Source of the DNA: Volvariella volvacea V23
Taxonomy: Eukaryota > Basidiomycota > Agaricomycetes > Agaricales > Pluteaceae
DNA length: 40,994 nucleotides
Assembly (NCBI GenBank): GCA_000349905.1
Contig: KB722767.1
Location: forward strand, 4,023 to 45,016
Direction: 5' to 3'
The notes under the pieces are model-generated. The model was not told where the DNA came from and made no database searches. It saw only the letters and a list, made by a program, of their open reading frames with translations. The position numbers and the translations under genes are program-made. Shown here one piece after another: positions 1,841-23,936 of this stretch. Position 1 is the first letter of the stretch. Each line of letters opens with the position of its first letter.

Positions 1841-4266
1841 TCAATTAACTTCTGCAATACTAACTAACTGCGAATCCTGACCCACAGCTAGATGAATGAG
1901 TTTCAACATTTCTTCATCGTGCGCCTTCAATATTGGTGCAGACCGAGCCACACCAAGCGCCCAGACGATTGCACCGCTATCGTTCAGGTTTGGGGGATAC
2001 AGGACCTCTCCCTCAATCCCTGCCCAGTCAAAATCGATGAGGTTTGCACGCCATACAGAACCTTCCTTAAACACCATAATATTCGGTCGACGAAGGTCAC
2101 CATACACATAGTTTTGATCATGAAGAGTACGGATGGCGCGAGTCAAATCTTCAATGACGCTCTCGGGTAAGCTCTTCTTGAAAAATGCATCATGTGCCGC
2201 CGTGCCTTTGGCGATGTCCATGACCACCATCTTGACTCCCCCACGCAACGTGGAGAAAAAGTGCAGTCGAGGAGCCAAATCCAGACTTGCGACTATCCCG
2301 TGAGCTCTTTCACAATAACGCTCACAAAACTTGACGAGGACTCGCTTGCCGTCGAGTTCGGCTATGAAGAGTGAACGGTTGTAATTGGTATCGTCCCATC
2401 CCGGAAATCGGAATCGCTCGATGAATCTAATAGCTGCTGGAGCCTGATCGATGTATGTCGGGTTGGGGAAGAGACGAGCGTGGACGGGCTGTGCGCTAAG
2501 CGGAGAAGACCGATAATAGTTTATTAAATCATTGATCGCACGCCGGAAGACATCGAATATCTGAGCGAGATTATAGATACGTTTTGTCAAGTATGGTCCA
2601 CCACCGAGGTAGATATACTCCGTGAATGATTCGGCGACGAAAATATCAGCACAAATAGAGCCTGCAAAGCAGATATATGGACCAGCGACAGAAATGAGGA
2701 TGCAAGGGCAATTAAATGTCTGTCGTATCCGTTGGTACTTAATGAAATACAGAATCAGTAAGATCACAAAAGGACTAATAGTGAAAGACGTACGTTGGCA
2801 CTACTTTGCTGCTTTCTCAGTGTGAGGGGGCCTTGAAGTCCGCTACTTCCACGAATGCCTAGTTCCGCCTTGAGCTCGAGGTGAGTGTGGATTGCGTTCA
2901 CGCCATCCGCCAGGCTGATTGTTGCGATGCCATCACTTTCAGCAGCCAAGACTCCATTCGCATTGTACGCCCTCGCGTGCATTTGAAACTCGACATCCAA
3001 AAGATTCTGAAGCACTTTGAGAATTTTGTCACTACGGTTATCCTCAAGTGTGTAGATTCCGTTTGAACGCTCGACCAACTTGGCTGTCTCGTTGACAAGA
3101 TATTGATTCGGGTTGATTTGGGAGAGGTTATCCAGCTCGTGTTTGATGGTGGCAAAGACACGGTGGTATATGGCAATGGGAGGACCAATGCGAGTGTTGG
3201 GACGTCCATTATAGATCGGGCGTGTTTCTTGCTCACTTTTGAGTTTGGCGAGACTATTCGCGACTACGGATGGCGCAGCTGCATGTCGGGCGTTTTGTAT
3301 TGCATCATTATGTGCTAAGGCGACAATTAGATGTTATACATCACATCTCAAGACACTAGACATTCACCTTTCTCGTCTGCATGCAATTCCATTTGGGCGG
3401 ATGCCGGCGTAGGTATATTCACGTAGCAATCAGTTATCAAGCCATCCTATATGGAACGAATGCCAGGTACTCACCTCTATGTATTACACGAACGACAAAT
3501 TGAACTTCCTCTAGTGTACACGTGTGCAGTGCAGAGATCTTGTCAATATCCTTCAACTCTTTGAGTGGCTCACACTCTTGGATTCGTTGGAGGAGCGTAT
3601 TGCGTGGCTCGATAGACAACGGAACCGACTAGAAGAGAAATCCAATAGAGGCAGACCCACGATGTAGAAGATAATTATTGTACGATACCAGATGCACTAG
3701 ATTGAGGTTGCTGTAGTCCATGTTGTTACTCTGCAACGCCATCGAGAACTTGTTGTAAACAGCTTTCATGAGCATATGAACAGTTGAATCGACGGGGAGT
3801 TGAACGTCAATCAGATCGTCCATTTCGTAACCAGAGATGATACAATTGAGTCTGAGGGCTGTATATTGCACCAAGTGGTCAATGCACGTCAAATAATAAA
3901 ACCAAGTTTAAAATGAATTGACGTCAATTAGAATACGATATTCGACTTACGAGGAACCCTTATAATGATGTGGACGTGTTTCTTAAGAGGCTGTTTCGGA
4001 AATACCTCGCCGATTTCATCTGCGGGGCCCAGCGTATCTTCATTAAGCTCAGGCTCTTGTGGTGTCTTGTCCTGTGTAATCATTGGAATCTCAACTTTCC
4101 AGAGTTCGAGGTGAACTGAATCGATGCCCTGGAAGTAGTTCGATCTCTTGTTGACAATGAGCTCCTTGAGGTCGCCAACTGTATCGTCTTTGTTGATCTT
4201 CACCGGAAAGGCTTTGGCAAATGGCTCGCCATAGATGATGCAGAAAAGGCTGATAAGGTTGGACAT
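1841..4266 (-). CDS. Crinkler-type effector candidate with tandem header, nuclease-like and kinase-like domains
   Basis: The exons I read, 5' to 3', are 4266-3951, 3858-3689, 3628-3475, 3314-2794 and 2737-1841. All phases agree and the product is about 685 residues. Whether 3474-3315 is one 160-bp intron or holds an extra exon (at least 9 nt, 3376-3368) is open. Residues 1-105 form a Crinkler header: an LFC..YGE..AKAF motif, then TVGDLKELI, LELWKVEIP, and the closing HVHIIIRVP, equivalent to the oomycete HVLVVVP motif. A second, diverged header follows (LRLNCIISG ... LNLVHLSVPL ... VQFVVRV). Residues about 214-387 contain SDG and, about 20 residues later, ELK, like a PD-(D/E)xK nuclease core. 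The tail is kinase-like: VLVKF lysine (about 523), YGDLRRPNI in place of HRD (about 600) and DFD in place of DFG (about 622). There is no signal peptide, as usual in fungal Crinklers. Crinklers act inside host or competitor cells, often in nuclei; activity here is inferred. Confidence 0.88.
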
Positions 4267-14586: not shown

Positions 14587-15764
14587 TCAATCGCCTCTCA
14601 TCGCATCTCCAGCTGCCTCCAACAACTCCCCCCAATCACGTCGTGATCCAAAGATCTTTGGCATCTCACGTATCCCTCCCTCACTCGCATCCTTGTCCAC
14701 CACCGGCAATATTGTCTGGCACTGAGCACACAGCGGTCCAACATCCCCTTCCTGCGGTCTCAAGCCATCTCGCAGAAACTGAATTGTCGCCAATTCCTGG
14801 GTCGTATTAGACTGGCTCATAAAGGCATTGCCAGCGTCCCAGTCCGGGACCGAACCCCTCTGGTGGTCGGCAAGCCCCTCTAACCAGAAATCCCGACAAA
14901 CGCTCGGGGACAAACAGTGGGAGTAGAATGTCGCCCATACATTGGCTTTACCCCGGACTAAGGAATAGCCGGAGAGAAGCCGGATAATGGGTTCCCATGC
15001 CTCCAGTAGTTGTGCCTTGACTCCTTCTTCAATCTCTACTGCCTGCAGCTTCGTGCGCCATTTCGACTTTCCGTCCATCAACTGTTCGTTCGTTATCAAT
15101 GGGGGTATCTTGTTCAGCTGAGCAGCATCATCGGGGTTCCCTCCGCCCAGCATGACGTTTTGCCGCAAGATCTCGTAGAAGACTGCATAAACCAGGACAT
15201 GTACGAGCAGCCAGGTGTAGTCGAATTCTTTGGCGATGCGGATCAGCTTTGGTCCCAGCTTGTCCAGAGATAGGTACGCGTAATCCACCATCTGATCGCG
15301 CCAGACCTGCAGCGATTCCGGGACGAAAGACGATAGGTGGCGTAAACAACGGCGACGGAGATACGAGACGTCGTATTTCATCGACAAGTTGAGAATGTCG
15401 AATATTGTGTCGATGGGGTACTTGACTGGATATGGTTCGAAAAACCTTGGCGGCGGGGGTTGATAATGGATAGGGAGCGCATCCAAGTTGGATCATACCT
15501 TGCATCGAAGATGGCACGTAGAAAGTGAGACAACTCTTCTGGTGAGTCATAGAGCTCGATTACTGGGTGGCCATTGTGACAAGCTTCATCTTTTGCGCGC
15601 CCAGATAGGGCGAACAAGTCGAAGAAGAACGTGGAACGGGCGGCCAGTAGACCGCGATATACCCGAAACGCGGTGGCACCAGCATGGAGGATGACATTGC
15701 CATCTGTGAACCAGACCTCTGTGGAGGGAGACAGTCCAGGTGGGAGATCCGAATGTTGGGACAT
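14587..15764 (-). CDS. BTB/POZ domain protein (tandem copy 1)
   Basis: Two exons, 15764-15499 and 15445-14587, with a 53-bp intron give 374 residues. The N-terminal BTB/POZ fold reads STEVWFTDGNVILHAG, FRVYRGLLAARSTFFFDLF, VIELYDSPEELSHFLRAIFDARFFEP, then the BACK-like helix FDILNLSMKYDVSYLRRRCL. This is the Agaricomycete family in which the BTB domain is followed by a helical region (LIRIAKEFDYTWLL). The C-terminus holds LCAQCQTILP, then IREMPKIFGSRRDWGEL. A CxxC followed by P..FG...W is shared with the neighbouring copy. BTB proteins mediate dimerisation and often bring substrates to Cullin-3 ligases; partners are unknown here. The intron sits at the same place (FDA|R-FFEP) as in the adjacent paralogue. 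Confidence 0.93.
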
Positions 15765-15903
15765 CGCAATGGTGGTTGATACTGGCGATATGTCCTAGGG
15801 TCGCAGCGAGGCTCGATGATTCAATCTCCGTCGGGCACAAGGCATAGACTACAGCACAACACGGAACACGACGTAGAAATACATTGATAATAGTACATGT
15901 ACC

Positions 15904-16907
15904 TTAATCTGGCAGCGATAAAATGCCCTGTTGTTCCCTCTTCAAATCTTCCCAAGAACCGAGTCCGAACATCTCTGGTAGGTAGCCCCACAGCTCCTTC
16001 CTCGTGTCCTCATAGTACTTTCTGTACCAACTGCTGCACGGCTCGCACATGCCCTTGAAGACATCCGTGTTGTCCGCCCGCAAGTCCAAGTAGCCCATAG
16101 TCTCCCACGTGGAGATGGACTGCAACCCTTCGGTACGTACACTCGCGCAGTGATCCTCCTCTTCGCATTCCGCATTATCCAAGCCTTCATTCATAACTTG
16201 CAACGCATACCGTATCTGCAGCTGAAGGAGCCGCGCCCTCCCAATTGAACTTGCGCGTATATCGTCTAGATGTAGCTCGATCTTCTGTTCCCTGAATGTG
16301 ACACCCTCGAAAATCTTCTCGAGCGGATGCGTGGCGATACAATAGTGAACGGCCGGGAGCACCCAAGACAGATTAAGCTCCCGAGCGAGGTTGAGTATCG
16401 CAAAGGGCATGTCATCGATAGCTGGGATGGTTCGTCGCCTATCGCGCGTGGTCCAGTTTTCGAGAGTGGTGGGATATGACGTTTCAAAGTGCATGACGGA
16501 TCTTCGCCTCAGGAAGTTCACGTGGTACTTTGTGCTCAAGCGGTATACTGCAGCTATGATTGAGAAGTCTATCGTTGACGGCGGCGGTTCAAAGAATCTG
16601 TGCAGAGACTGAGGGGTTGGGTATCGGGCCTATGCGATGGATAAATGAGTGCTCACCCACTGTGGTATATCGCCATGAAGAAGTAGCCCGCATCCTGACT
16701 GGTATCACCCAGCTCGATAAAGGTATATGGTTGGTCGCCCTGCTGGTCGGACGCAGCCAACTTGTCGCGGAAGAAGGAGGAGTGCATACACAGAAGGCCC
16801 TTGTAAAGACGAAACACGGTCTGCTGGGCTTGTAGAATGACATTTCCATCTTCGAACCACAGATCCTTCGCTCTCTTGAGCTCAGGGGGTACGTCGACTT
16901 TTGTCAT
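15904..16907 (-). CDS. BTB/POZ domain protein (tandem copy 2)
   Basis: Two exons, 16907-16657 and 16597-15904, with a 59-bp intron give 314 residues. BTB motifs are AKDLWFEDGNVILQAQ, FRLYKGLLCMHSSFF, FIELGDTSQDAGYFFMAIYH, and across the intron FFEPPPSTIDFSI, then YRLSTKYHVNFLRRRSV. The helical region includes LARELNLSWVLPAVHY. The C-terminus carries MCEPCSSWY and WGYLPEMFGLGSWEDL. It is about 60 residues shorter than the neighbouring copy and clearly diverged, so the duplication is not recent. Same strand, 139 bp between the genes, same intron position: a tandem duplication. Confidence 0.93.
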
Positions 16908-18204: not shown

Positions 18205-20592
18205 ATGGCCACCAACATCTTCAAGAACATACGCGTGTATTGTGAGTGTGCTATTATTATCTCTTGCTGCCCCACTTGTCCTCAGATGTGGTCCAGGGCT
18301 CGCGTTTATCGTCTACTGGGGAATTCTGCTCTTCGGTTATGACACGTAAGTACCATATCTGTGCTAGATCTTCAGTTCGCATCGCTCACGCTCATCAAAG
18401 CGGTATCGCGGGGGGTGTGGTCTCTCAACCCTATTTCCAACGTCATTTCGGATTGGTCAATGAGGATGGAACGAAGGATGTCAGGAGAACAAACGAGGTC
18501 TCTTCCAATGTGGTCTCCGTGCTCCAGGGTGGTGCGTTCTTTGGTGCACTGTCAAGTGCTCCGGTATCTGGTACGCCATCAAATTCTGTGTACCCCAGCC
18601 ACTTCTCACCCGGAGACTAGCTAGAATCGGTCGCTGGTGGACACTCGTTACCTACACACTACTTTTCAGTGTTGGTGCTGTATGTTGCACATTCATACTC
18701 CTATCGCATTTTGGGTTAAACCTCGCCGTTTTAGGTCCTAACTACTGTGGCAAATGACCCAAAGAACGGTCTACCCTTGATCTACGCCGGTCGAGTTATC
18801 TCTGGTTTCGGTATCGGCGCCGTGTCCGCGGTCGCCCCTGCATATGTCTCCGAGTGTTCTCCCAAGGCCGTTCGTGGACGTATCACCGGTCTGTTCCAGA
18901 TCATGGCATGTATCCATTTCAACTCCGACTTGTGAGATGCTTACTGTATGACAGGTAGCTACTGGTGTCATGATTTCCTATTTCATCAACTGTGTGTGGT
19001 TTGATATCGCATCCCTGGATTCAGCTTATACCTTTTTTAGTCGGAGTGGGATTGAATCTCCCAAACAGTGTCCTCGTTTGGCGCTTGCCGTTCGGCTTCC
19101 AACTGGTACCCGCTGGAATCCTGCTCCTTGGGTTGTTGACAGTCAAGGAGTCCCCACGTTGGCTTGCCTCCGTGGGACGGAGGGACGAAGCTATCAAAAA
19201 TTTGACCTATCTCCGCAAGCAGCCTGCCGATTCTGAGGAGATAATCCGTGAGATGGCTGAAATCGATGCCGCTATTGAGGAAGAACGTCTCGCAAGAGAA
19301 GGCCTTGGATGGAAAGAGGCTTTCTTCGGCAAGGGCAACTTCATCCGATTCGTTATTGCCTTCGTCATCTTCCTCTTGCAACAATGGAGTGGACAGAACT
19401 CTGTCAAGTGGGTGTCCTTGTTTTCCGTGCAGTGAGGTGGTACTCACCCATCCTCATAGCTACTACGCCCCACAAATCTTCGCCTCTGTGAGTTCATTAT
19501 TACGAGCAGGGGCGGGACTGGTTCTCATGTTTAATATAGATCGGATACATTGGTCCTAGGAACTCACTTCTTGCCTCTGGTATTTACGGTATCATTAAGG
19601 TAACTCCCACTTCAATCACTCTCCATCAATTCTATTTACATCCATCACTGCTCAGGTCGTCGCCACAGCTATTTTCATTTTCGGCTTCGTCGAGTCGCTC
19701 GGTCGCAAGATCCCTTTGATCATCTCGTCTGTCGGAATGGGCAGCTTGTTCTACATCATCGGAGCCATCCTCAAGACGCACCCTCCCCCGACGGACACCA
19801 GCACTGCACCTCCAAGCCCCCCACCCGCCTCTCAAGCTATGGCCGGCATGTTGTACATCTACGTCTGCTTCTACTCCATGGGATGGGGTATGTGGCTTTT
19901 GTGGCTTTTTCAGCTCCGAAGGATTAATTCTCGATGCAGGACCACTTCCCTGGGTCTACGTATCTGACATTTTCCCAACACGAACCCGTCACTATGGCTT
20001 GGCTCTGGCCAGCGCATCACAATGGCTATGGAGTAAGTTCCTTCCAAGATGATTATCCGGGCCGCTTCTCTTCCCACGTCAAGCGACAGGTTAGCTGACT
20101 GCACACGTGTTGCCTCTATCTAGATTTCGTGGTCTCAAAGGTTACACCTGATATGATCACTTCCCTCGGCTACAAGATCTTCTTCACATTTGGGACCATC
20201 AACATTGCTGGAATGGGTCTTTTCTCAGTGTATGCTCCATTTTACCAATTCACTCTCACAAGCTAACATTTCTTGGCAGACTCATCCCCGAGACCAAAGG
20301 CCGCTCCCTGGAAGACATGGACATCATCTTTGGTGCTATCTCTGCTGAACAGAGACAGGCCAACATCGACCGTATGGAGCAAGGTGGGTGTTGCGTTTCC
20401 CATTATTTCCATACTCCTGTCGAACGGCCATATGGTCCTGGGATGACGCTTCCATCTGCTTCTTAACCCCTTCCAAACTTACCGTTTTATGATTCTGATT
20501 AACCATATCTGATACCTTCCGTTCGTTTAGCTGCCCGAGGACAAGAAAAGCGAGAGACAGACTCTGAGCAGTCTGTTCGAGAGAAAGTTTAA
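18205..20592 (+). CDS. MFS sugar transporter (quinate/hexose permease-like), tandem copy 1
   Basis: Fourteen exons, all phases consistent: 18205-18241, 18297-18345, 18401-18570, 18621-18679, 18735-18905, 18955-18991, 19041-19407, 19460-19487, 19540-19599, 19656-19887, 19940-20032, 20124-20229, 20280-20383, 20531-20592; 524 residues, normal for the family. Sugar-porter signatures are ARIGRWW (loop 2-3), YAGRVISGFGIGA, VSECSPKAVRGRI, KESPRWL, QQWSGQNSVNYYAPQIF, LGRK (loop 8-9) and PETKGRSLEDMD. Twelve membrane spans are expected, with a Pro-rich outer loop (PPPTDTSTAPPSPPPAS). It would import sugars or quinate-like compounds at the plasma membrane; the substrate is not determinable. The intron after FQIM (18906-18954) begins GCATGT, a GC-AG intron; the paralogue uses GT at the same site. 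The next gene is its tandem duplicate. Confidence 0.95.
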
Positions 20593-21430
20593 TGGCGATT
20601 TGGGCAATGAATTTTTTAATGTTGTTGGGGCAAGGTCATTACGTATACCTCACGATTTATACATGATTTTTTCGGTTGTACAGTATTACGAGCGTTTCTT
20701 CCTCGATGCATTGCTTTTCTTGATCCCGATCAGAGTGCTCTCAGCTCGACAATTTTTTCATGCAAAAATTTTGTTTCTTATGTTAGAAGGATTCATTGCG
20801 GAAAAACTATGGCTTTACACTGAGCAAACCATGCGCAAACAACTCGGGAGCGCAGCGACGATGTAGTTGAATTCAGTTCACACGCATCCTTCTATTGAAC
20901 CACACCCCCTCTTTTCGTAATGGAGAAGCTGTAATTGAAAGTTAGAGATAAGTGGTGGCATCAACCATCACTCGCGATCACAATGCGGACGTACGTTCAC
21001 CCCTTTTGATTGGCTCTAGGACTGAACGTCTCTGCGAAATCCGCATGCAGGGACCCCACTTCGTCTTGTGTTGCACACCACGGAGGAGAACGGGGGCTCG
21101 AGAAGTTTCACGCATCGAATGAGTGCTTGGACGGGAAGCGATTGGTAATATCAAAAGGCCCGGGCAGCAGGAAGGCCCGTTTCCGTCAGCCTTCTTCCTT
21201 GAGCGGGTATGGCGGACCTAAGTTTCCGCTTCTGACGTTACCTTTTTGTGGTGGACTCGAAGTACACATCCCATTGGTGAGTATATAAAGCACCTGTCGT
21301 GTCCATTGGTTTTATTAGCAGAGTTCTTCTGCACTCCATCATTGGTCCACACGTTGTCCCTCTCTACCTTGTCTCTTTAACGTCACGATTTGAATTCACC
21401 TAGAAGACTCGACAACTAATTGGGCTAACG
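20593..21430. other. Intergenic between the two sugar transporters
   Basis: About 840 bp holding the 3' flank of copy 1 and the promoter of copy 2. I see no gene; plus-strand frames at 20,600-20,866 and 21,010-21,288 have no family resemblance. Confidence 0.5.
21271..21290 (+). promoter_or_regulatory. TATA box and CCAAT-type element of transporter copy 2
   Basis: A TATATAAAG sequence lies at 21,282-21,290, about 140 bp before the ATG at 21,431. CCATTGG (an inverted CCAAT) sits immediately upstream at 21,271-21,277. Copy 1 has no comparable TATA box, so the two duplicates may be expressed differently. The call rests on motif and spacing only. Confidence 0.5.
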
Positions 21431-23936
21431 ATGGCTGGAGAGGCTGCTTCCGGGACGTTTCAGAATATTCGGGTGTATTGTGAGCGTTTCTTGCAGTCGA
21501 TGAAGTTTGGGTCCAACAGCAGGTTGCAGGGCTCGCGTTCATCGTCTACTGGGGAATTGTCCTTTTTGGTTACGATACGTACGTCCCCATTCGACTTTCA
21601 CTTAACCGCTAATGAACCGCGTACTCTAGTGGTATTGGGTATGTCCTCGTCATCCCATATGACCCACCGACCTCACTTCTGGTCCAACAGTGGTGGCGTA
21701 GTGAACTCCAATTACTTCCTGCAGTACTATGGAATCGTAAATGAGGATGGGACTACGGATGTTCACAAGAAGGACGAGGTATCGGGGAACGTCGTTTCCG
21801 TACTGCAGGCAGGAGCATTCTTTGGTGCGCTGGGTTGTGCTCCAGTCTCAGGTGAGGTTCTACGGCTATCTCGATTACGACTACCTGGCTCCGTCACGCT
21901 CCTACGCTGTTCGGCAATATGTCCCTGGGTGACACCTTTGATATCCCCGCAGTGGGGTCATCTGAGCAGGGCATATGGTCCATGATCTATCTTTAGAACA
22001 CGGGGTTGGGCTACATACCATTAAGCTCTGCCCTTCCGTCGCACCATTAATTCGTCAAAAAGCCTATTCTAACGCACTTTACAGCAAGGATAGGGCGAAA
22101 ATACACCCTTTTTGCATTCACGATCATATTCGTCGTTGGTGCAGTACGTAATTTATTCTACGTGTACTGAATTGCTGTCAACCCGGTGGCATAGATTCTC
22201 ACCACCATCGCACATGGACCTCACGGGTTGTCACATATCTATGCTGGGCGTGTCCTCTCTGGCTTTGGGATAGGTGCAATTTCAGCTGTCGCTCCTGCGT
22301 TTGTATCAGAGTGCTGCCCCAAAGATGTAAGAGGAAGGATAACTGGAATGTTCCAAATCATGGTAATGTCCGAAGATACGTCGTTGCCGTTCTAGATGCT
22401 TAACTCGCCACTATAGGTTGCTCTTGGCGTTATGATTTCTTACTTCATCAACCGTGCGTTCTCGGTCATTCTGTCAGGTTTAATTGCTGACACTATTTGA
22501 TAGTGGGAGTTGGCCTGCACATCAAGACTGGACTTGATGTCTGGAGAATCCCATTTGGACTTCAATTGGTCCCTGCAGGCATAATGGCCATCGGTCTTCT
22601 TACTGTAAAGGTGAGTAAATGATGATCAAGTATAAGGTCTAGTACTTACTCTCAATAGGAATCTCCGCGTTGGCTTGCCTCTGTAGGTCGCACGGAAGAA
22701 GCCCTGGTGAACCTCGCATATCTCCGCCGCCAATCTGTTCACTCAGAATCGGTCGTCTCGGAGATGGCTGAAATCGAGGCTGCGATCAACGAAGAGAAAG
22801 AGGCTAGAAAAGGTTTAGGATGGAAAGAGGCGTTCTTCGGAAAGGGAAATTTCATTCGATTCGTGATCGCCTTTGTGATTTTCCTTTTGCAACAATGGGC
22901 TGGTCAAAATTCCGTCAAGTGAGTAGACATTCGGCACCTTTCCGCTTCGACTCTCATGCGTGTTTTGTTACGAAAGCTATTATGCTCCACAAATCTTTGA
23001 GTCCATCGGCTATACCGGCACTACAAACTCATTACTTGCCAGTGGTATTTACGGTACGTACCTCATCAAGATCATTCGAATTCATTATCTCTGATTCATC
23101 TCTACCATTCAGGCATTATCAAGGTTGTCGCCACAGCCATATTCATTTTCTTCGGTGTCGAGACTCTGGGTCGCAAGTTGTCATTACTCATTTCGGCTTT
23201 GGGCATGGGAACGCTCTTCTACATCGTCGGTGCAATCTTGAAAACCCACCCACCTCCAACGCCTATTCCTGGACAAGCCCCACCGCCACCCCCGCCAGCA
23301 TCAAAAGCGATGGCAGCCATGCTCTACATTTACGTTTGCTTCTATTCTATGGGATGGGGTAAGCAACGGTTTTAAACTCGAAGAATCGGCCATTCTAACT
23401 CGCTATGCAGGACCTCTCCCATGGGTATATGTTGCCGATATTTTCCCGACCCGCACAAGGCACTACGGACTTGCATTGGCAAGTGCCTCGCAATGGTTGT
23501 GGAGTGCGTATTAGTGCCAGCCGCTGACTCGGTGCTATCTAACTCTATAACGATAGACTTTGTCGTGTCTAAGGTGACACCACAAATGAAGACAGCGCTT
23601 GGCTATAAGCTGTTCATCATGTTCGCGACCGTCAATATCGGCGCCATGGGCCTCTTCTCTGTGTATGTTCTCGACCGACCGTGTCTGTCCGGACTTGCAC
23701 TCATCCCCTTCTTCATAGCCTTATCCCCGAAACAAAGGGAAAAAGTTTGGAAGAGATGGACGTTATATTCGGGGCTGTATCTGCCGAAAAGCGACAGGCG
23801 GATATCGACCGCCAACAACGAGGTACGTATGCCAACTTCACACGCCAGGCGCTGTGTGCTAAGTGATGGTGTAGCCCTCGAGGACAAGGGTGAAGAAGAC
23901 CAATCCAAGACATCCATCAACCAGAAAGAGGCTTAG
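21431..23936 (+). CDS. MFS sugar transporter (quinate/hexose permease-like), tandem copy 2
   Basis: Fifteen exons, phase-consistent: 21431-21479, 21530-21578, 21630-21638, 21691-21851, 22085-22143, 22195-22362, 22417-22453, 22504-22610, 22659-22918, 22977-23053, 23113-23358, 23411-23503, 23557-23662, 23719-23822, 23875-23936; 528 residues. Motifs match copy 1: [69 protein letters not shown], again with a Pro-rich outer loop. Exon 3 is only 9 nt, yet it supplies the TGIG of the first membrane loop. Intron 4 (21852-22084) is 233 bp, four times the usual size. Relative to copy 1 it has two extra introns (after TGIG and after TVK), lacks one (after QIF.S), and has one shifted by 11 nt. The family and place in the plasma membrane are firm; the substrate is unknown. 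Confidence 0.95.

What the first reader, a model, noticed from the sequence alone, without database searches (positions are those of the whole stretch)
1841..4266. Crinkler-type protein with two header domains in a row, a nuclease-like core and an altered kinase tail
Seen: two header-like modules in tandem, each ending in a hydrophobic H/E-V-x-x-x-V-R motif at an exon end, followed by SDG...ELK and then a kinase-like domain with YGDLRRPNI and DFD replacing HRD and DFG. Known: Crinkler proteins usually carry one N-terminal header for delivery; REase-plus-kinase tails have been described for this class. Inference: the second header (exons 2-3) arose by internal duplication and may act as a spacer or a second delivery or ubiquitin-like module. 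The altered HRD and DFG motifs mean that catalysis is not assured.
Basis: partly seen in the sequence, partly recalled or inferred. Interest (0 to 1): 0.78.

Follow-up and report, generated by a model that had tools for sequence, protein, structure and literature searches.

The report
Mushroom Crinkler protein with tandem headers
A gene in a straw-mushroom-like fungus encodes a Crinkler-type nuclease-kinase protein that carries two ubiquitin-like header domains in a row instead of one, and some related mushroom proteins carry two to four, so the header looks like a unit that evolution has multiplied more than once.

Summary
Confirmed, with corrections. The minus strand at 4266-1841 reads as an intact five-exon gene: header 1, header 2 (two exons), a PD-(D/E)xK-like nuclease and an atypical kinase. 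Header 1 is a clear Crinkler header (PF20147, 86 bits). The first half of header 2 matches the same profile (17.4 bits, below cut-off; a local profile beats all 1000 shuffles); the second half is not proven by profile. The host is Volvariella or close kin.

The tandem header is not a one-off. Two paralogs carry a further full header. Introns before internal headers are homologous (25-32 of 36 bases), and direct repeats of period 461-474 span intron plus header. An annotated V. volvacea protein joins header 1 to header 2 at the matching junction of a paralog. Of 24 header-bearing proteins among 117 retrieved, 7 have two or more (four in Phlebopus). A contiguous internal header folds as ubiquitin-like.

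The 'altered' kinase motifs are the family norm; no middle exon is needed, though a 9-base one is not excluded. Header 2 is not a recent copy of header 1. That arrays act as multivalent docking chains is inference.

The parts
3951..4266 (-). Exon 1: N-terminal Crinkler header 1, starts at ATG, ends HVHIIIRVP; donor GTAAGT, phase 1
   Evidence: PF20147 86 bits, profile 1-105/106; 84% identity to a V. volvacea protein
3859..3950 (-). Intron 1, before header 2; its 3' end is homologous to the introns before internal headers in two paralogs
   Evidence: 27-31 of 36 bases identical to four such introns, against 8-13 of 36 to the other five introns compared
3689..3858 (-). Exon 2: first half of header 2 (strands 1-2, helix, strand 3 by analogy), phase 1 to 0
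   Evidence: PF20147 17.4 bits from profile position 1, under the cut-off; local profile 28.2 bits, 0 of 1000 shuffles; paralogs at C32:110982-111146 (60%) and C14:6074-6235 (56%)
3475..3628 (-). Exon 3: second half of header 2, ends EEVQFVVRV and IHR, phase 0 to 1
   Evidence: Profile inconclusive (4.5 bits, 15 of 1000 shuffles reach it); three paralogous copies, 65-74% identity; dN/dS point estimates 0.17-0.42
2794..3314 (-). Exon 4: linker and first part of the REase (PD-(D/E)xK-like) domain, SDG (2940-2926) and LELK (2880-2857)
   Evidence: Aligns to the nuclease region of REase-kinase relatives; no Pfam family over its cut-off
1841..2737 (-). Exon 5: last part of the REase domain (CPCILISVAGPYICFAGSICAD) and atypical kinase with VLVKF, YGDLRRPNI, DFDWAG; stop 1843-1841
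   Evidence: Kdo kinase 21.6 bits (cut-off 21.3) and Pkinase 21.5 bits (cut-off 31.7); 32% identity to P0032 in the alignment

Best explanation
This is an intact fungal Crinkler protein of the REase-plus-kinase class whose N-terminus carries two ubiquitin-like headers head to tail. Header 2 belongs to an internal-header subfamily that, in this genome, multiplies by tandem duplication of a unit made of an upstream intron plus a header, bounded by phase-1 introns, so a copy can be added without breaking the frame. In other mushroom-forming fungi arrays of two and four headers exist too, and in several their headers are each other's nearest kin, which points to repeated within-gene duplication (protein-level evidence only). 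Shown: anatomy, homology of the inter-header introns, recurrence, and an Ubl fold for a contiguous internal header. Inferred: the protein works as a nucleus-acting DNA-cutting toxin whose nuclease is controlled by the kinase, and the header array is a multivalent docking module whose length tunes binding to a partner (my likelihood for that last step about 0.4). Whether the partner is a delivery route or an intracellular factor of the fungus is open.
For: Header 1 and exon 2 profile matches. V. volvacea protein P0059, by eye the counterpart of the C14 paralog, joins header 1 to the first half of header 2 and has two PF20147 stretches. Exon 2/exon 3 modules recur at C32:110.4-111.4 kb and C14:5.5-6.6 kb, followed there by a further full header of 41.3 and 54.1 bits and by nuclease/kinase sequence. 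Direct repeats of 36-300 bases spanning intron and header, spacing 461-474. Homologous inter-header introns. dN/dS point estimates 0.17-0.46 in 7 exon 2/3 comparisons. Multi-header proteins from six other species, four headers in P0061, with sister headers within Phlebopus (96/92), Lactarius (99/72) and Chiua (95/79). Internal header model pLDDT 85.8 matching SUMO, UFM1, ISG15 and ubiquitin relatives. Kinase and ExK residues conserved.
Against: No transcript data. Exon 3 is not a header by profile alone. The window's own header 2 was not folded because an intron splits it; the fold evidence is for a related internal header. Psilocybe's two headers are not sisters, so not every array need come from local duplication. 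The other-species arrays are database gene models. The dN/dS values are untested point estimates on 50-56 codons. No call tests what any header binds, and the nuclease fold was not confirmed by structure.
Confidence: 0.78

Rival explanations
1. The extra headers are neutral: tandem duplication of a symmetric exon unit is easily tolerated, and header 2 is a spacer with no binding role.
For: Phase-1 to phase-1 units insert without frame damage; header 2 has diverged strongly from header 1 (14 of 42 aligned residues identical) and its second half is hard to recognise.
Against: dN/dS point estimates below 1 in both header 2 exons; the fold of a contiguous internal header is kept in the model; arrays in several lineages.
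Confidence: 0.22
2. The protein is not delivered anywhere: it is an intracellular self-defence or incompatibility factor of the fungus, and headers dock it to an internal sensor or ubiquitin-pathway protein. (This rivals the delivery half of the open question, not the anatomy.)
For: The nearest species found is V. volvacea, an edible saprotroph (recalled). The Crinkler domain was also annotated at N-termini of fungal NLR receptors (PMC9815663, passages read). According to the review PMC5289972 (passages read), signal peptides predicted in CRN N-termini lie within strand 1 of the Ubl fold.
Against: CRN8 of P. infestans is described as translocated into plant cells (PMC3426532, passages read); nothing here tests location.
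Confidence: 0.4
3. Two neighbouring genes or a pseudogene were read as one.
For: No RNA evidence; some other copies in this genome have stops inside the matched stretch (C15:116 kb, C15:129 kb and C31), decay or introns not told apart.
Against: All five exons are open with matching splice phases; P0059 is annotated as one (partial) protein across the header 1/header 2 junction; other species have single proteins with 2-4 headers and REase-kinase sequence.
Confidence: 0.06

Closest known systems
Crinkler (CRN) proteins, REase-plus-kinase class of the CR-toxins (Zhang et al. 2016, known here only through the review PMC5289972, passages)
   Same: PF20147 Ubl header at the N-terminus, ExK nuclease core, kinase tail
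   Different: Described with one header in what I read; here two, and two to four in some relatives
P0032, V. volvacea AX16_003459, 620 aa
   Same: Header, REase, kinase in the same order; GDLRRPN and DFDW motifs
   Different: One header only
P0061, Phlebopus sp. FC_14, 930 aa
   Same: Headers in tandem followed by REase-kinase
   Different: Four headers that group together in the tree
P. infestans CRN8 (PMC3426532, passages)
   Same: CRN with a kinase; the review assigns a REase domain too
   Different: Classical RD kinase; oomycete; a single header is recalled, not checked
Tandem ubiquitin-like proteins (ISG15, linear polyubiquitin)
   Same: Beta-grasp domains head to tail
   Different: No C-terminal Gly-Gly at either header end; fused to a nuclease-kinase; 5-19% identity in the 50 fold matches shown

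Membership tests
Crinkler (PF20147) proteins | N-terminal header over the curated cut-off | tested here: met
   Header 1 86 bits against 24.6
Crinkler (PF20147) proteins | Second header over the curated cut-off in the window gene | tested here: inconclusive
   Exon 2 17.4 bits, exon 3 no Crinkler match, pieces searched apart; last headers of the two paralogs 54.1 and 41.3 bits
Crinkler (PF20147) proteins | Ubiquitin-like fold of the header | tested here: met
   Predicted for the contiguous last header of the C14 paralog: pLDDT 85.8, Ubl matches; not for the window's own headers
Crinkler (PF20147) proteins | LxLFLAK motif of oomycete CRNs | tested here: not met
   Window reads LFCIIYGEPFAKAF; the motif is reported as less conserved in fungi (PMC6131194, passages), so I do not treat it as excluding
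Crinkler (PF20147) proteins | HVLVVVP-like motif at the header end | tested here: met
   HVHIIIRVP at 3978-3952, by likeness, not identity
CR-toxin REase-kinase class | Nuclease core with D and ExK | tested here: met
   SDG and LELK align with the family columns; the fold of the nuclease alone was not searched
CR-toxin REase-kinase class | Kinase with lysine, catalytic D, N and metal-binding D | tested here: met
   VLVKF, YGDLRRPN, DFD present at columns at least 90% conserved; activity not testable
CRN effectors | Secretion or translocation into another cell | not testable with these tools
   Needs experiment
Polyubiquitin / ISG15 | C-terminal Gly-Gly for processing or conjugation | tested here: not met
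   Header 1 ends IIIRVP, exon 3 ends VVRVIHR

The most novel reading that the evidence does not exclude
Mushroom Crinklers carry genetically encoded poly-ubiquitin-like chains: header number is an evolvable dial, set by tandem gain and loss of an intron-bounded unit, that tunes how strongly a nuclease-kinase toxin is docked to its carrier or sensor, and this has been selected repeatedly and independently.
Probability: 0.27. Interest if true: 0.75.

Novelty: new variant of a known kind. Interest (0 to 1): 0.56.

Why it matters
What the Crinkler header does in the cell still needs testing (so the review PMC5289972, passages). A natural series of one to four headers on similar nuclease-kinase bodies, with one-header and multi-header genes in Volvariella itself, makes it testable by binding and deletion. 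It also gives a clear case of exon-unit duplication building a domain array, and shows Crinkler diversification in mushrooms not known as pathogens (lifestyle recalled).

Tried and rejected
Recent internal duplication of header 1: rejected, no DNA repeat in the window gene, while both paralogs show repeats. Middle exon in 3475-3315: not needed; the direct join keeps phase 1. Of two other acceptors tried by eye, the one ending at 3447 runs into a stop; the one ending at 3377 gives a 9-base exon (3376-3368) that keeps the frame and is not excluded. Inactive kinase: not supported by the motifs. Subtelomeric position: the gene lies about 6-8 kb from the end of contig C32, but no exact TTAGGGTTAGGG was found in the 56 loci then held, among them the first 800 bases of C32, C14 and C31, and no tandem repeat in those 800 bases of C32. 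PDB by sequence: header 1 only weak Ubl5 matches (E 0.014 and above); kinase piece best BUD32, E 0.00079. Foldseek of the whole P0032 model shows kinases in the 50 rows listed of 1998, so the nuclease fold is unconfirmed by structure. Rfam at gathering scores and ARAGORN on the window: nothing. The sigma-70 promoter scan is not relevant to a fungus. P0062 repeat: a first script compared a position with itself and was redone. In one search the C14 header-internal intron was cut one base off, so its ungapped counts are low; by gapped score the header-internal introns of the window, C32 and C14 genes are also alike (15 and 8 against shuffle maxima of 3 and 4).

Literature: nine paper searches bear on prior description, plus one id look-up that failed. 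I saw listings for all nine and passages of PMC5289972, PMC9815663, PMC6131194, PMC4219462 and PMC3426532. Nothing that I saw reports tandem headers. Zhang et al. 2016 (NAR), the main survey, is not held, so mention there is possible.

Full report
What is there. On the minus strand the window holds five open pieces with GT-AG borders: exon 1 4266-3951, exon 2 3858-3689, exon 3 3628-3475, exon 4 3314-2794, exon 5 2737-1841. The splice phases fit (1, 0, 1, 0); the lengths sum to 2058 bases, 685 residues plus stop. This is a model by eye; there is no transcript evidence. A 9-base extra exon at 3376-3368 would also keep the frame. I kept the exons apart in every computation.

Headers. Exon 1 is a Crinkler header (PF20147, 86 bits). 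Exon 2 matches profile positions 1-51 at 17.4 bits, under the 24.6-bit cut-off. A profile from 14 headers of the same genome gives exon 2 28.2 bits with 0 of 1000 shuffles reaching it, and exon 3 4.5 bits with 15 of 1000 reaching it. Three narrower profiles gave exon 2 22.8, 24.0 and 11.1 bits (0 of 1000 each) and exon 3 2.6, 0.3 and 0.5 bits (62, 133 and 225 of 1000). So the homology of the first half of header 2 is firm, and the second half is supported mainly by position, its closing hydrophobic VQFVVRV and its paralogs.

The host. Header 1 finds two proteins in the large collection, both from Volvariella volvacea WC 439 (84% and 65% identity). The genome holding the window has 35,390,291 bases in 54 contigs. 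I take it as Volvariella or near kin; species and strain are not established.

Paralogs with more headers. PF20147 has 24 matches in the genome, 21 over the cut-off. Among the scored candidates, exon 2 and exon 3 relatives occur in the window gene and at two other places. At contig C14 the order is header 1 (6633-6343), exon-2-like (6235-6074), exon-3-like (6015-5878), then another full header (5774-5502), then nuclease/kinase sequence (C14:4804-4382, E 8e-4). At C32:110-111 kb the order is exon-3-like, exon-2-like, exon-3-like, full header, then kinase; the first module there is only partly recognisable and no header 1 was found there. The last headers score 54.1 (C14) and 41.3 (C32) bits.

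How they arose. Direct repeats with spacing 461 (C14, 117 bases) and 470-474 (C32, 300, 59 and 36 bases) run across the end of the intron and the start of the next header, and in C32 also across exon 3. The last 36 bases of the five introns that precede internal headers agree at 25-32 of 36 positions in all ten pairs; the 35 other pairs among the ten introns compared agree at 7-19 of 36 (one of those introns was cut a base off, and by gapped score the header-internal introns are alike among themselves). In the window gene the unit begins and ends in phase 1. That is direct evidence for tandem duplication of an intron-plus-header unit in this genome. In the tree of 43 headers the internal headers of the three genes form one group (98/93), apart from the N-terminal headers (98/98); deeper order is unresolved, and the half-length rows are weakly filled, so I do not claim where the first internal header came from. 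The window gene itself shows no such DNA repeat, so its own second header is old.

Independent support for the junction. P0059 (V. volvacea, annotated partial, 160 aa) reads from header 1 straight into the first half of header 2 and carries two PF20147 stretches. By eye its sequence corresponds to the C14 paralog, and its junction (RVP-F-LRLN) is what splicing at that paralog's GT-AG border would give; the window's border is at the same place.

Beyond this genus. Three protein searches gave 54, 2 and 65 proteins, 117 distinct, which were scanned with an extended header profile. At domain E below 0.001, 24 have a header and 7 have two or more: P0059 (Volvariella), P0060 (Chiua virens), P0062 (Suillus subalutaceus), P0063 (Psilocybe cyanescens), P0064 (Suillus discolor), P0104 (Lactarius vividus) with two, and P0061 (Phlebopus sp.) with four. 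Pfam itself counts two to four stretches in the last six. Those six continue into REase-kinase sequence; by eye P0104's model lacks part of the nuclease. The sample is biased: the query alignment held P0059 and P0032, so 7 of 24 is no frequency for Crinklers at large; the other 17 show one. In the tree the headers within Phlebopus (96/92), Lactarius (99/72) and Chiua (95/79) group together, the Suillus headers and one metagenome header form one group with mixed order (95/97), and Psilocybe's two do not group. In P0062 a run of 52 residues is identical between the two headers and ends within about three residues of where the window's header 2 is split by its intron.

Selection. Nei-Gojobori dN/dS point estimates are 0.26, 0.46 and 0.29 for exon 2 pairs and 0.17, 0.32, 0.42 and 0.18 for exon 3 pairs; header 1 pairs 0.38-0.52, the last-header pair 0.64. 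No test was made and the stretches are short (50-56 codons for exons 2 and 3).

Fold. The contiguous last header of C14 was predicted with mean pLDDT 85.8, pTM 0.74, order strand-strand-helix-strand-helix-strand. Foldseek's matches are mostly ubiquitin-like proteins in the 50 rows shown, among them SUMO, UFM1 (TM 0.70/0.85) and ISG15, with some other beta-grasp domains such as FERM and Ras-association domains; the best E-value is 3.6e-4 and 8 matches are at or below 0.001. Header 2 of the window was not folded because an intron splits it.

Nuclease and kinase. The window's SDG and LELK fall on the family's columns. In the P0032 model the ExK lies in strand 275-285, followed by two helices and strand 323-329, as expected for this nuclease class (recalled), but no structural match for the nuclease was obtained. 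For the kinase the best Pfam matches are Kdo/WaaP and Pkinase, equal in E-value. G-D-L-R, P-N and D-F-D-W are at least 90% conserved; 16 of the 19 rows covering the kinase have FGD, two have HG, and the window has YGD.

Mechanism. From the review PMC5289972 (passages), the REase domain is thought to carry toxicity and the NTPase or kinase to regulate it, and the header, an Ubl domain, is thought to serve secretion and translocation. I apply that by homology. The new element is the array. Head-to-tail Ubl copies could give avidity for a partner; I think that is the likeliest use (about 0.4), with neutral duplication as the main rival. PMC9815663 (passages) reports the Crinkler domain at N-termini of fungal NLRs, which fits an intracellular docking role as well as delivery.

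Verdict. A real variant: an array of Crinkler headers, two in this gene, up to four elsewhere, formed in this genome by duplication of a symmetric intron-plus-header unit. I found no report of it in the searches named under Tried and rejected, but the key survey was not available.

Noticed in passing
L008 (C15:116255-116554), L026 (C15:129596-130486), L027/L028 (C31:5671-6521): Header or nuclease/kinase copies with stop codons inside the matched stretch; decay or introns not told apart; described only. Near the C15:129 kb and C31 copies the header profile found only one weak stretch (8.6 bits, E 0.08, seen in two overlapping loci of C15).
   Followed up: partly
L021, L011, L024, L020, L012 (C14:16537-27231): Five header matches of another header type on one strand within about 11 kb of contig C14; L020 matches only profile positions 1-52, as if split by an intron at the same place as header 2.
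   Followed up: no
L033:877-2427: A 516-residue open frame with kinase matches and a REase-like stretch, but no header found by Pfam; relatives in Tetrapyrgos, Armillaria and other mushrooms.
   Followed up: partly
window 18246-23936: Two similar stretches on the plus strand (NEDGT and NVVSVLQ.GAFFGAL in both) look by eye like neighbouring sugar-transporter genes.
   Followed up: no
window 14587-16629: Neighbouring minus-strand frames that look by eye like a pair of related BTB-type genes.
   Followed up: no
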